Source: Seleniivibrio sp.
GTDB lineage: Bacteria; Chrysiogenota; Deferribacteres; Deferribacterales; Geovibrionaceae
Assembly: GCF_021209385.1 (NCBI RefSeq)
Contig: NZ_JAJOIL010000014.1
Coordinates: forward strand, 1-57,292
Direction of reading: 5' to 3'
Length of the DNA stretch: 57,292 nucleotides
Positions 6,228 to 11,431 of the stretch are shown here, piece by piece. The position numbers and the translations under genes are program-made. The notes under the pieces are model-generated. The model saw only the letters and a list, made by a program, of their open reading frames with translations, was not told where the DNA came from and made no database searches. How positions within the stretch are numbered: the first letter of the stretch is position 1; the number at the start of each line of letters is the position of its first letter.

Positions 6228-6326
6228 TTTGATTTTTTAATGACATGCCGTATGGTTTCTGATATAAAAAATCTTCCGATACAGGTGCGTCCAAAATCTG
6301 AAATAAACATATAAAAGGTGTCTTTA

Positions 6327-6560
6327 ATGAAAGCAAAAGTGTATGTCAGGCTTAAGAACGGCGTTCTCGACCCTCAGGGACAGACAATCCAAAGCTCAAT
6401 CGAAAGAATGGGTTATGAATTTGCGAAAGAGGTAAGGGTTGGCAAGGTCTTTGAAATAGAGGTTAAGGATGAATCCTGCCGTAAAGATCTTGAAAAGATA
6501 GCCTCCACAATGCTTGCAAACATGATCATCGAAGAATATTCCATAGAGTTTGAGGCGTAA
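6327..6560 (+). CDS. purS: Phosphoribosylformylglycinamidine synthase subunit PurS
   Basis: PurS is the small subunit that bridges PurQ and PurL in the FGAM synthase complex, step 4 of purine synthesis. The 77-residue length and [20 protein letters not shown] opening are typical of the family. The ATG at 6327 is chosen over a GTG at 6318 because AAAGG lies eight bases before it and family members begin here. It opens the purSQLF operon, two bases ahead of purQ. No PurR-type site or purine riboswitch fold was recognised in the leader, which instead holds the hairpin array. Confidence 0.95.
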
Positions 6561-6562
6561 GC

Positions 6563-7261
6563 ATGAAAGCCGGAGTAGTTGTTTTTCCGGGGTCCAACTG
6601 TGACCACGACTGCTATCACGTTTTAAAGCATGTCATCGGAGCCGAAACGGTTTTCCTGTGGCATAAGGACACTGACCTTCAGGGTGTTGACCTTGTTGTA
6701 TTTCCCGGCGGGTTCTCATACGGAGACTACCTGCGCTGCGGAGCTATCGCAAAGTTCTCTCCCATTGTTAACGAGGTCATAAAATTTGCCGAGAACGGCG
6801 GGCATGTGCTTGGTATCTGCAACGGATTTCAGGTGCTTACCGAATCCGGTCTGCTTCCCGGCGCGCTGATGCGCAACAAAGGTCTGAAATTCAAATGCGA
6901 ATATCTGAACCTACGAGTGGACAACTCCGACACACCCTATACCAGTATGTATGCTGACGGAGAGGTCATCAGCATTCCGATAGCTCATGCCGACGGCAAT
7001 TACTATATTGACGAAGAGGGCATGAAGGAGCTTGAGGATAACAATCAGATAGTGTTCCGCTATTGCGATGAGAATGGAACAGCGGAAAACGACAGCAACC
7101 CCAACGGCTCGCTGGGCAACATCGCCGGAATCATAAACAAAAAGGGCAACGTTCTGGGCATGATGCCCCACCCTGAAAGGTGTGCGGAAGGCGTTATGCA
7201 GACCCGCGACGGATACTTCCTTTTTGAATCAATAGCAAAATTCATCGGGGGCTTAAAATGA
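6563..7261 (+). CDS. purQ: Phosphoribosylformylglycinamidine synthase subunit PurQ (glutaminase)
   Basis: This 232-residue class I glutamine amidotransferase supplies ammonia to PurL. The nucleophile Cys lies in [10 protein letters not shown] and the His/Glu pair in [10 protein letters not shown] near the C-terminus. The N-terminal [12 protein letters not shown] is characteristic of PurQ. Its last four bases overlap the purL start, which suggests translational coupling. Confidence 0.97.
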
Positions 7262-9489
7262 GCGTATACGAAAAATTCGGTTTCCCCGAGGTAACGGCGG
7301 AAGCGGCGAAGGGCATGGGGCTTTCCGCATCCGAGTTTGACGGTGTTAAGAAACTTCTGGGCAGAACGCCCAACTACATAGAGCTTGGTGTTATTTCATC
7401 AATGTATTCCGAGCATTGCAGCTATAAATCCAGCCGTGTGCATCTGGCAAAGTTCCCTACAACAGCCCCTTGGGTTGTTCAGGGACCCGGCGAGAATGCG
7501 GGTATCATAGAGGTCGATAACGAAGGGCTTTGCGTATGCTTCAAGGTTGAATCTCACAACCACCCGTCGTTCATCGAACCCTTTCAGGGCGCGGCTACTG
7601 GCGTGGGCGGTATCCTCCGCGACGTATTCACAATGGGCGCAAGACCCGTTGCGGCGATGAACTCGCTCCGTTTCGGCAAGCTGGACAAACCTAAAAACCG
7701 CCAGATTTTTGAAGGCGTTGTTGCGGGAATCTCCCACTACGGCAACTGCTTCGGCGTTCCCACAGTGGGCGGCGAGGTTTACTTTAACAGCTGTTACGAC
7801 GGTAACCCCCTCGTAAACGCGTTTGCTCTGGGCGTTGTCCAGAAAGAGAACATCTACCTTGCGAAGGCGGAAGGTCTCGGCAACCCCGTTATCTACGTCG
7901 GCGCCAAGACAGGGCGTGACGGTATTCACGGCGCTACTATGGCATCAGAGGAGTTCAACGAGAACAGCGAGGCGAAACGCCCCAATGTACAGATTGGCGA
8001 TCCCTTTAAAGAGAAACTTCTGCTTGAGGCATGCCTTGAGCTTATGAAGACCGACTACATAGTCGGCATACAGGATATGGGAGCAGCAGGGCTTACCAGC
8101 TCGTCATTCGAGATGGCTTCAAAATCAGGTTCTGGCGTAAGGCTCGACCTTGATATGGTTCCCATGCGCGAAAAGGGTATGAACCCTTATGAAATCATGC
8201 TTTCCGAGTCACAGGAGCGTATGCTTATGGTGGCTAAGAAGGGTTATGAGGACAAGGTTAAGGCTATATTTGAAAAATGGGATCTGGACGCGGTTGTTAT
8301 CGGCGAGGTGACAAACGACGGATATGTAAGGCTGTTCTGGGAAGGGGAAGAGGTTGCGGCTCTTGAGGCGGCACCCCTTGCTGACGAAGCACCAAAGTAT
8401 AACAGACCCTACGCCAGAGGCGAATATATGGATGAACTCCAGCGTCTGCCCAAGGTTGAATCACCCGCGAACCTGCAAAAGGTTCTGGAAGACCTGCTCG
8501 CCAACGAGACAATAGCTTCTAAACGCTGGGTATGGAATCAGTACGACCACATGGTTCGTGTGGGTACCGTACAGCTTCCCGGTTCCGATGCGGCTGTTAT
8601 AAGGCTGAACGAATCCGAGAAGGGCATTGCCATTTCCAGCGACTGCAATAGCAGATACTGTCTGCTCAATCCCTTTGAGGGCGGAAAAGCGGCGATTGCA
8701 GAATCAGCAAGAAACGTAGCTGTGAGCGGTGCGCGCCCCAGAGCATTCACTAACTGTCTGAACTTCGGAAACCCAGAAAAACCGGACATCATGTGGCAGT
8801 TCGTTTCAGCGGTTGAGGGCATGGCGGAAGCGGCAAAAGTGCTTGAAACTCCTGCGATCAGCGGTAACGTTTCACTCTATAACGAAACAGAGGGTAAACC
8901 GATTCATCCCACACCCACAATAGTGATGGTGGGCGTGTTCGACGATGTTACCAAACGCATCGGCTCATACTTCACCAGTATGGAGAGCGCTGTGTATCTG
9001 CTCGGTGAGAACACCGGATACATCGGCGGCAGTGAATATCTTGCCTCCGTACACGGTTACGAGCGCGGCGACGCACCAGAGGTTGACCTTGAGCGCGAGA
9101 AGAACATAATAGACTTCATGTGTGCGGCGGCTGACAAAAGACTCGTCAAAGCGGCTCACGACGTTTCAGAGGGCGGTCTGGCTGTTGCTCTGTGCGAGAT
9201 GTGCTTCGGCGGCGAGAACGTAGGCGTTAATGTTAAGCTTGAAAGCGGCATCCGCAGTGACGCTCTTCTGTTCGGTGAAAACCACGGACGTGTCATTCTG
9301 GAAATAGACGTAAACAACGCACAGGCGATAACAGCACTTGCGGAAAAATATAATCTGCCTATATCGAAAATAGGACGCACATGCAGCGGACTTATTGAGA
9401 TTGCGAACAAGAGCGAAAAGGTCATATCCGCGAAAGTGGCTGATCTTGAAAAAATATGGAAAAACAGTATCGGAGACAGAATGAAATGA
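7258..9489 (+). CDS. purL: Phosphoribosylformylglycinamidine synthase subunit PurL
   Basis: This is the 743-residue small-type PurL, the ATP-dependent synthetase that converts FGAR to FGAM together with PurS and PurQ. Recognisable signatures include [11 protein letters not shown] near residue 50, the metal/ATP region [19 protein letters not shown] and the repeated AIRS-type halves ([13 protein letters not shown] near residue 640). The length matches PurL from genomes with separate purS and purQ. Its stop codon overlaps the purF ATG. Confidence 0.98.
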
Positions 9490-10856
9490 TTTTTGATAAA
9501 TTTCACGAAGAATGCGGGGTAGCAGGGGTTCACGGAAACAGAGAGGCGGCTAATCTTGTTTATCTGTCGCTGTATTCACTCCAGCACAGGGGACAGGAGG
9601 GCGCGGGTATAGCCGTGACCGACCGCAAACATATATCCTATGAAAAAGGAATGGGGCTTGTGGCTGATATTTTCAGTCAGGACAAACTGGACAAACTTCA
9701 GGGTGATATCGCCATCGGGCATAACAGATACTCCACAACAGGCGTATCCGCTCTGGCTAACACCCAGCCCATCACCGTTACGATAAATTTCGGCGAGATA
9801 TCCATCGCGCACAACGGAAACATTGTGAACGCTGACGAGATAAAGGATGGGCTTGTTGCGAGAGGCGCAATATTCGGTTCCACTTCGGATTCGGAAGTTA
9901 TCGTCCACCTCATAGCAAAATGCGGAAAAGATAACCTTGTTGATGCCATAACTGATTCCCTGCGCAAGCTCAAGGGTGCTTTTTCACTGCTCATCATGAC
10001 AAACGACAAGATGATAGGCGTGCGCGACGCTATGGGTATGCGTCCGCTTGTTCTCGGTAAACTTAAAAACAACGGATACATCCTTGCTTCCGAGACAGTC
10101 GCTCTTGACCTTATCGAAGCAAGCTTTGTCCGCGAGATAGAGCCGGGCGAGATGGTAATCATCGACGACGACGGTATTAAATCCATATTCCCGTTTGAAA
10201 AGACCACGCCGAAACCCTGCATATTCGAGCATATATACTTTGCGCGCCCCGATTCATACCTGTTCGGACGCAACGTGTACGAAGTGCGTAAGAAATTCGG
10301 CAGGTGGCTTGCGAATGAAACACCCGTGGATGCGGATGTGGTTATTCCTGTTCCTGATTCCGGCGTTGTTGCGACGCTCGGTTATTCCGAAGCGAGCGGT
10401 ATACCTTTCGAGATGGGACTTATGCGTAACCACTATGTCGGCAGGACGTTCATCGAACCCAGCCAGTCAATCAGACACTTCGGCGTTAAGATCAAACTGA
10501 ACCCCGTGAGGGAAGTTATAGAAGGAAAAAGGATTGTCGTTGTGGACGACTCCATAGTAAGGGGTACCACAAGCCGTAAGATAGTAAAAATGCTTCGTGA
10601 GGCAGGCGCGAAAGAGGTGCATATGCGCATCAGCTCGCCCCCTACGGCGTTTCCCTGCTTCTACGGCATAGACACTCCCACCAGAAAGGAACTGATAGCC
10701 TCTACACACACAATAGAGGAGACCAGAAAATACATAACCGCTGACAGTCTCGGATATCTGAGCATAGAAGGACTGATGGATTGCGTCGGCAGCACGAACT
10801 ACTGCCATGCCTGCTTCTCCGGTCAGTATCCGACGATTTACAAGAACGGTGAATAA
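9486..10856 (+). CDS. purF: Amidophosphoribosyltransferase PurF
   Basis: PurF catalyses the first committed step of purine synthesis, making phosphoribosylamine from PRPP and glutamine. With the start at 9486 (GGAGA upstream, overlapping the purL stop) the protein is 456 residues. It begins with a nine-residue propeptide before Cys10 in the HEECGVAG motif, so autocleavage to expose the catalytic Cys is expected. The PRPP site is [13 protein letters not shown]. Cysteines in [15 protein letters not shown] and NYCHACFSG match the four ligands of the [4Fe-4S] cluster in Bacillus-type PurF. It is followed 12 bases later by the probable selenoprotein gene, apparently in the same transcript. Confidence 0.97.
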
Positions 10857-10868
10857 CGGAGTGATTTT

Positions 10869-11219
10869 ATGGAAGAGATGATCGTTATCCGTATGTTCGG
10901 CAGCAGCATGGAGTTTGTTTCAGGCTGAAGCCCTTCGTATTTTCCCACAGGTTGTGGGACACACGATGATCCCTACGAACAGCTTTCCTATAGGCTGGAT
11001 GCGCTTCTGACACAGGAGTATGGACTCGGACGGATTGATTTCAGGTATATCGACGTTTCGTCGCCGGAGATACTTGACTATATCGGCGACATCGAGACCA
11101 TTGTGGACGGAAGACTGCCGCTACCCTATGTTTCTCTGAACAAAAAGCCTCTTTGCTGGGGACTTTCCGAGGCGGAGGACATTGTTACAAGGGTTAAGCT
11201 GAAATTGGATGAGAGTTAA
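10869..11219 (+). CDS. Probable selenoprotein: small thioredoxin-fold protein with in-frame TGA (Sec20)
   Basis: From the ATG at 10869 (GGAG seven bases upstream) one frame runs to TAA at 11217-11219, interrupted only by TGA at 10926-10928. Read as selenocysteine this gives 116 residues. Coding character continues unbroken on both sides (FGSSMEFVSG-U-SPSYFPTGCG). A perfect stem-loop with a GGU apical loop lies 21 bases after the TGA, within the usual bacterial SECIS geometry. The predicted fold is beta-alpha-beta-beta-beta-alpha with a cis-Pro-like RLPLPYVSL segment, resembling YuzD/thioredoxin-like proteins. Sec20, Cys29 and Cys96 are candidate redox residues. It follows purF by 12 bp and ends at a strong terminator. 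The selenocysteine reading is inferred; the alternative is a nonsense mutation of a Cys codon. Substrate and function are unknown. Confidence 0.8.
10926..10965 (+). promoter_or_regulatory. Candidate bacterial SECIS element
   Basis: The UGA at 10926-10928 is followed by TCCCACA (10943-10949), loop GGT (10950-10952) and TGTGGGA (10953-10959), a perfect 7-bp stem. The two first loop bases are G and the loop begins 22 bases after the UGA. A lower stem of CGT (10936-10938) with ACG (10963-10965) is possible. The apical CAGGTTG resembles the CAGGTCTG loop region of E. coli fdhF. Confidence 0.75.
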
Positions 11220-11221
11220 TG

Positions 11222-11246
11222 AAGCGGCTGGATAAGCCGCTTTTTT
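11222..11246 (+). terminator. Rho-independent terminator after the selenoprotein gene
   Basis: AAGCGGCT (11222-11229) pairs perfectly with AGCCGCTT (11235-11242) around GGATA and runs into six T. It begins three bases after the TAA of the selenoprotein frame, which supports that frame as the real last gene of the pur operon. Confidence 0.92.
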
Positions 11247-11258
11247 GTTCTGCCGTTG

Positions 11259-11431
11259 ATATGCTTCGCTCTGCGTCGTCGGTTTCTTCTCGCTCGCAAC
11301 ACATACCGTCGTGTATGCTTATGCTCATCTCGAATAAATCCTCCTCGCATAGCTCGCATCTGAACGGCAGACAGGAGAGATATGCTTCGTTCTGCGTCGT
11401 CGGTTTCTTCCCGCTCGCAACACATACCGTC
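11259..11431. repeat. 52-bp imperfect direct repeat
   Basis: The segments 11259-11310 and 11380-11431 match over 52 bases with two mismatches (C/T at the 11th and T/C at the 32nd base), offset by 121 bp. TCTGCCGTT before the first copy is also repeated inverted (AACGGCAGA) before the second. Short frames on the minus strand through the repeat carry a duplicated peptide but show no start signals and are not called as genes. Confidence 0.85.

What the first reader, a model, noticed from the sequence alone, without database searches (positions are those of the whole stretch)
10869..11219. Probable unannotated selenoprotein in the purine operon
Directly seen: the frame opened by an ATG with a good ribosome binding site after purF contains one TGA (10926-10928), then continues as clean coding sequence to a TAA three bases before a strong terminator. 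A perfect 7-bp stem with a GGU loop starts 15 bases after the TGA, its apical loop 22 bases after it, matching the published geometry for bacterial SECIS elements (stem 4-16 bp, short loop, a G in the first two loop positions, 16-37 base spacing). Inference: the product is a thioredoxin-fold, YuzD-like protein with Sec20 and Cys29. A standard gene finder would miss it or split it. Its link to purF, an oxygen-sensitive Fe-S enzyme, hints at redox protection of purine synthesis.
Basis: partly seen in the sequence, partly recalled or inferred. Interest (0 to 1): 0.9.

Follow-up and report, generated by a model that had tools for sequence, protein, structure and literature searches.

The report
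New selenoprotein gene behind purF
A gene that ordinary gene finders miss, because it contains a TGA read as the rare amino acid selenocysteine, sits at the end of a purine-synthesis operon in selenium-using Deferribacterota bacteria and makes a thioredoxin-like protein of a family whose other members are linked to iron-sulphur cluster assembly.

Summary
The 116-codon frame at 10869-11219, with one in-frame TGA at codon 20, is a real selenoprotein gene. Twenty homologues in 19 genomes (five families, seven genera of the phylum, about 50-97% identity) all keep TGA at this codon. None has Cys there, and codons after the TGA evolve as coding sequence. All 20 lie directly behind purF. A bacterial SECIS hairpin follows the TGA; its variable pairs covary, and synonymous Cys29 codons follow the hairpin partner.

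The genome encodes SelA, SelB and a Sec-containing SelD. tRNA-Sec is missing from this 42-contig assembly but present in all four congeners. Same-family genomes that lack the gene lack the Sec machinery.

The protein is a distant YuzD (DUF1462) relative with a thioredoxin fold. Sec20 aligns with YuzD's CxxC motif. In three Bacilli genera yuzD sits among Fe-S assembly genes, and the PurF here has all four Fe-S ligands. My best guess is a Sec-based thiol oxidoreductase that matures or protects Fe-S PurF; that function is inferred, not shown. The family is absent from a 2026 catalogue of 119 prokaryotic selenoprotein families and from NCBIfam: a new selenoprotein family, decoded by an ordinary mechanism.

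The parts
10869..11219 (+). YuzD-like selenoprotein gene, 116 aa with Sec20 and Cys29
   Evidence: TGA-interrupted frame conserved in 20 homologues
10926..10928 (+). UGA selenocysteine codon (Sec20)
   Evidence: invariant TGA in all homologues; aligns with a Cys of the YuzD CxxC motif
10943..10959 (+). bacterial SECIS hairpin: 7-bp stem, GGU loop
   Evidence: 93.7% of cells paired, two pairs with compensatory changes, slid controls far lower
10953..10955 (+). Cys29 codon of the GCG motif, inside the 3' arm of the hairpin
   Evidence: Cys29 invariant in the main family; its third base follows the hairpin partner
9456..10856 (+). purF, amidophosphoribosyltransferase of the [4Fe-4S], propeptide type
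   Evidence: aligned with 1ao0; all four Fe-S ligand cysteines present; directly upstream of the Sec gene in 20 of 20 loci
7258..9489 (+). purL-like ORF (operon context)
   Evidence: ORF and sequence character, naming from knowledge of the family
6563..7261 (+). purQ-like ORF (operon context)
   Evidence: ORF and sequence character, naming from knowledge of the family
6318..6560 (+). purS-like ORF (operon context)
   Evidence: ORF and sequence character, naming from knowledge of the family
11221..11243 (+). terminator-like hairpin ending the operon
   Evidence: 9 pairs, T tail; such sites are no commoner than chance in the region, but this one directly follows the stop codon

Best explanation
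The gene encodes a small thioredoxin-fold selenoprotein of the YuzD (DUF1462) kind, made as the last gene of a purS-purQ-purL-purF operon. Ribosomes read the UGA at codon 20 as selenocysteine because the downstream SECIS hairpin recruits SelB with Sec-tRNA (shown by conservation, covariation and genome machinery; not shown by biochemistry). Sec20, with Cys29 nine residues later as the likely resolving thiol, forms the redox centre (inferred). The most likely job is thiol-disulphide or persulphide chemistry that helps assemble, maintain or protect Fe-S proteins. The co-produced [4Fe-4S] PurF is the first client (inferred from operon linkage here and from the Fe-S neighbourhood of yuzD in Bacilli).
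For: All 20 homologues in 19 genomes keep TGA at the codon, at about 50-97% identity. Third codon positions differ most both before and after the TGA. Hairpin pairs covary: 18-34 is C-G, U-A, U-G or G-U; 22-30 is G-C in 8 and A-U in 4 sequences, where the 3' partner is the synonymous third base of Cys29. SelA and SelB lie side by side and SelD carries its own TGA in this genome. tRNA-Sec is in all four congeners. Same-family genomes without the gene lack SelA, SelB over cut-off, SelD over cut-off (two tested) and tRNA-Sec. Some homologues end in a genuine TGA stop, so TGA is not reassigned. YuzD relationship: PF07315 hit by 15 of 18 members, best 1.3e-5, one over the gathering cut-off; 1xg8 by profile and as the top fold match; profile-profile E 1.6e-7. 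yuzD lies near NifU-family, A-type Fe-S carrier, YuzB and NAD(P)/FAD oxidoreductase genes in Priestia and Staphylococcus, and near NifU, YuzB and NAD(P)/FAD oxidoreductase genes in Listeria. PurF ligands.
Against: No direct proof of Sec insertion. tRNA-Sec was not found in this assembly. Seven members have one or more broken pairs in the stem (six at pair 22-30, one at two other pairs). The active-site loop, residues 15-31, is predicted with low confidence. Three same-family genomes keep an Fe-S-type PurF without the gene, so it is not essential for PurF. The Fe-S role rests on gene neighbourhood alone.
Confidence: 0.6

Rival explanations
1. It is a genuine selenoprotein, but its job has nothing to do with Fe-S clusters: a general peroxide or thiol reductase that merely shares the purine operon, perhaps acting on the active-site cysteines of PurF or PurL or on small-molecule disulphides.
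For: Thioredoxin fold and a Sec/Cys pair. Same-family genomes keep Fe-S PurF without it. Paralogues in two genera lie away from purF.
Against: Strict purF linkage over all 20 loci and the Fe-S neighbourhood of yuzD in Bacilli.
Confidence: 0.33
2. The UGA is a selenium-sensing switch: product level, and perhaps purF mRNA stability, depends on selenium supply, and regulation is the main role.
For: UGA decoding depends on selenium supply in general (established knowledge); the gene is last in the operon, directly after purF.
Against: The protein itself is strongly conserved with 26 invariant residues, which a pure sensor would not need.
Confidence: 0.04
3. Pseudogene or sequencing error: a TGT/TGC codon misread as TGA, or a truncated remnant.
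For: None beyond the single-genome view.
Against: TGA in 20 separate loci, with coding-type substitution downstream.
Confidence: 0.01
4. Readthrough by another route (code reassignment, TGA as Trp, or suppression) rather than selenocysteine.
For: tRNA-Sec not seen in this assembly.
Against: Sec machinery present and Sec-containing SelD; SECIS hairpin covaries; the gene is missing in the same-family genomes that lack the Sec machinery; TGA is the real stop in some homologues; the aligned residue in YuzD is Cys.
Confidence: 0.02

Closest known systems
YuzD family (Pfam PF07315, DUF1462), e.g. S. aureus protein of PDB 1xg8
   Same: Thioredoxin fold, similar length, matching C-terminal two thirds (hhalign E 1.6e-7), Sec20 on the CxxC region, conserved Pro before the strand (P86)
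   Different: Sec in place of a Cys; the other Cys of CxxC is lost and a new Cys29 lies 9 residues downstream in a PxGCG insert; neighbour is purF rather than NifU/YuzB; most members score below Pfam's cut-off
Known Sec thioredoxin-like families (Trx, Grx, UXX-star, SaoT, Sec.1/Sec.2 in PMC13188914)
   Same: Small thioredoxin-fold protein with N-terminal Sec in the active site, and a bSECIS downstream
   Different: No convincing match to any NCBIfam model (best 0.13, to UXX-star, for one member); motif U-x8-C instead of UxxC or CxxU
Bacterial SECIS elements of the bSECISearch model
   Different: Nothing essential; seven members carry mismatches within the stem

Membership tests
Bacterial selenoproteins | In-frame UGA conserved in homologues, or aligned with Cys | tested here: met
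   20 of 20 TGA; aligned with a Cys of CxxC in YuzD in L-INS-i, E-INS-i and hhalign
Bacterial selenoproteins | bSECIS hairpin immediately downstream | tested here: met
Bacterial selenoproteins | SelA, SelB and SelD in the genome | tested here: met
Bacterial selenoproteins | tRNA-Sec in the genome | tested here: inconclusive
   not in this 96.6% complete assembly, in all four congeners
Bacterial selenoproteins | Selenium shown in the protein | not testable with these tools
   needs 75Se labelling or mass spectrometry
YuzD / DUF1462 (PF07315) | Match to the family profile | tested here: inconclusive
   15 of 18 members hit, best 1.3e-5; one over the gathering cut-off; the window's own protein gives none
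YuzD / DUF1462 (PF07315) | Thioredoxin fold like 1xg8 | tested here: met
   Foldseek E 7e-5, only match below 0.001; VIA-align Z 9.4 over 104 residues, but only 0.4 above an ordinary thioredoxin
YuzD / DUF1462 (PF07315) | CxxC (CASC) motif invariant in the three Bacilli YuzD compared | tested here: not met
   one Cys replaced by Sec, the other absent; Cys29 instead. So it is filed as a Sec-containing relative, not a plain YuzD
PurF, [4Fe-4S] propeptide type (neighbour) | Four Fe-S ligand cysteines and an N-terminal extension before the catalytic Cys | tested here: met
   alignment with 1ao0

The most novel reading that the evidence does not exclude
A selenocysteine-containing redox protein dedicated to de novo purine synthesis, which builds or repairs the Fe-S cluster of PurF. 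Selenium supply would then feed directly into nucleotide production across much of a phylum, and YuzD in Bacilli would be revealed as an Fe-S assembly or repair factor.
Probability: 0.35. Interest if true: 0.8.

Novelty: new variant of a known kind. Interest (0 to 1): 0.62.

Why it matters
It adds a selenoprotein family that annotation pipelines would miss. It is found only with Sec in the genomes searched, so searches that look for Cys/TGA pairs among close homologues would not find it. It links selenium to purine synthesis and gives YuzD, an uncharacterised family with a solved structure, a testable Fe-S-related function from two independent gene neighbourhoods.

Tried and rejected
Single-sequence Pfam and NCBIfam scans of the window protein gave nothing; only the set of homologues reached DUF1462. 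Cys homologues were sought in 385 genomes by profile, among downstream ORFs of non-carrier purF loci, and in plasmids, phages and viral contigs: none. Rfam gave no match at the hairpin. The eight best tRNA-Sec-like matches in the own genome are all ordinary tRNAs. The 20 kb around the congener's tRNA-Sec is mostly unmatched in the own assembly; the nearest collinear piece lies 1.4 kb from the end of a contig, which fits an assembly gap but does not prove it. Papers: no mention of YuzD or DUF1462 as a selenoprotein; subscription papers are not covered.

Full report
What is in the sequence. The frame from ATG 10869 to TAA 11217-11219 contains one in-frame TGA at 10926-10928, codon 20, and reads as 116 residues. 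It begins 12 nt after the stop of purF and ends just before a terminator-like hairpin. On its own the hairpin is not rare: 26 of 2231 TGA triplets in the window are followed by one at least as stable, and the fold has z = -1.8.

Conservation settles it. A search of 100 related genomes found the protein in 19 (five families and seven genera of the tool's numbering), with 20 purF-linked copies at roughly 50-97% identity, every one interrupted by exactly one TGA at the same codon. A profile search of 385 genomes found no copy with another residue there. Codon third positions differ most, before and after the TGA alike (per-site differences 0.14/0.11/0.55 before and 0.27/0.16/0.51 after), as expected of protein-coding sequence on both sides. 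In three copies the final stop is itself TGA, so TGA is not simply reassigned.

The hairpin is a real element. On 19 sequences (18 distinct), 93.7% of cells pair, against at most 56% when the partner is slid by 1-3 columns, and the covariation score exceeds all 500 shuffles. Two pairs show changes on both sides. At pair 22-30 the 3' partner is the third base of the Cys29 codon: eight sequences pair G-C and four A-U, so the synonymous choice TGC or TGT follows the hairpin. Six sequences with a U at this position are mismatched and one further sequence has two broken pairs, so the stem is imperfect in seven members.

Machinery. SelB and SelA lie side by side on contig 31 of this genome, and SelD on contig 4 carries its own in-frame TGA. 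No tRNA-Sec was found in the assembly: the best matches are serine, leucine and other tRNAs. All four congeners have one at 73-75 bits. The 2 kb around the congener's tRNA-Sec has no match in the assembly, so a gap is the likely reason. Among same-family genomes, the three without the protein (G006, G008, G010) lack SelA, SelB over cut-off and tRNA-Sec; SelD was searched in G006 and G008 and is below cut-off. Some Sec-using genomes of the order lack the protein (for example G015), so Sec use does not force its presence.

What the protein is. Fifteen of 18 members hit Pfam DUF1462 (YuzD), best E 1.3e-5; one copy exceeds the gathering score. Profile searches reach S. aureus YuzD, PDB 1xg8, which is also the only Foldseek match below 0.001 for the predicted model (pLDDT 77). 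VIA-align gives 1xg8 Z 9.4, only slightly above ordinary thioredoxins, so the fold alone does not single out YuzD; the sequence profiles do (hhalign E 1.6e-7 with three YuzD sequences). DUF1462 was placed in the thioredoxin-like clan earlier (PMC3091736). L-INS-i and E-INS-i alignments and the global hhalign against three YuzD sequences put Sec20 on the second Cys of YuzD's CASC motif; hhalign against 1xg8 alone put it on the first, and G-INS-i left it shifted. Cys29, in an invariant GCG motif, is new, giving U-x8-C. Its position suits a resolving thiol, but the loop 15-31 is modelled with low confidence.

Neighbourhoods. purF is the upstream gene in all 20 copies. This PurF aligns with the B. 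subtilis enzyme (1ao0) and keeps all four Fe-S ligand cysteines and an N-terminal extension before the catalytic Cys (ligand identities from knowledge of that enzyme). In Priestia, Staphylococcus and Listeria records yuzD lies near a NifU-family gene, yuzB and NAD(P)/FAD oxidoreductases, with an A-type Fe-S carrier in two of the three. The family is therefore next to Fe-S genes in two distant lineages with different neighbours. This is the main ground for the Fe-S proposal. Against it, three same-family genomes keep an Fe-S-type PurF without the gene (ligand patterns intact in two, and one of three patterns not recognised in the third).

A second branch. Two genera carry a paralogue away from purF, again with an in-frame TGA and a hairpin (L159 in G005, L163 in G011), with a C-x3-U motif (EECTSGU, EPCEAGU) and shared neighbours, a membrane protein and a methyltransferase.

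Novelty. The 2026 review's table of 119 prokaryotic selenoprotein families and subfamilies does not contain DUF1462/YuzD or a purF-linked family, and no NCBIfam model matches convincingly. The literature held here has no report, but subscription papers and GenBank annotations could not be checked. The mechanism, UGA plus SECIS, is standard; the family, its U-x8-C motif and its tie to purF are new.

Confidence. That it is a selenoprotein gene: about 0.97. The figure of 0.6 given to the best explanation covers the full statement, with an Fe-S-linked thiol role in the broad sense; the strict version, a factor dedicated to the Fe-S cluster of PurF, I put at about 0.35.

Noticed in passing
L159 (G005) and L163 (G011, match at 1501-1797): A second YuzD-like selenoprotein branch with a C-x3-U motif, a hairpin after the TGA and conserved neighbours (membrane protein, methyltransferase), away from purF.
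   Followed up: partly
window 11258-11310 and 11379-11431: Two 53-nt direct repeats, 96% identical, just downstream of the operon terminator.
   Followed up: no
   Followed up: no
G000 contig 4, 12905-13825 (L155): SelD of this genome is itself a selenoprotein with one in-frame TGA, as in its relatives.
   Followed up: partly
G000, whole assembly: tRNA-Sec not found although SelA, SelB and SelD are present; probably an assembly gap.
   Followed up: partly
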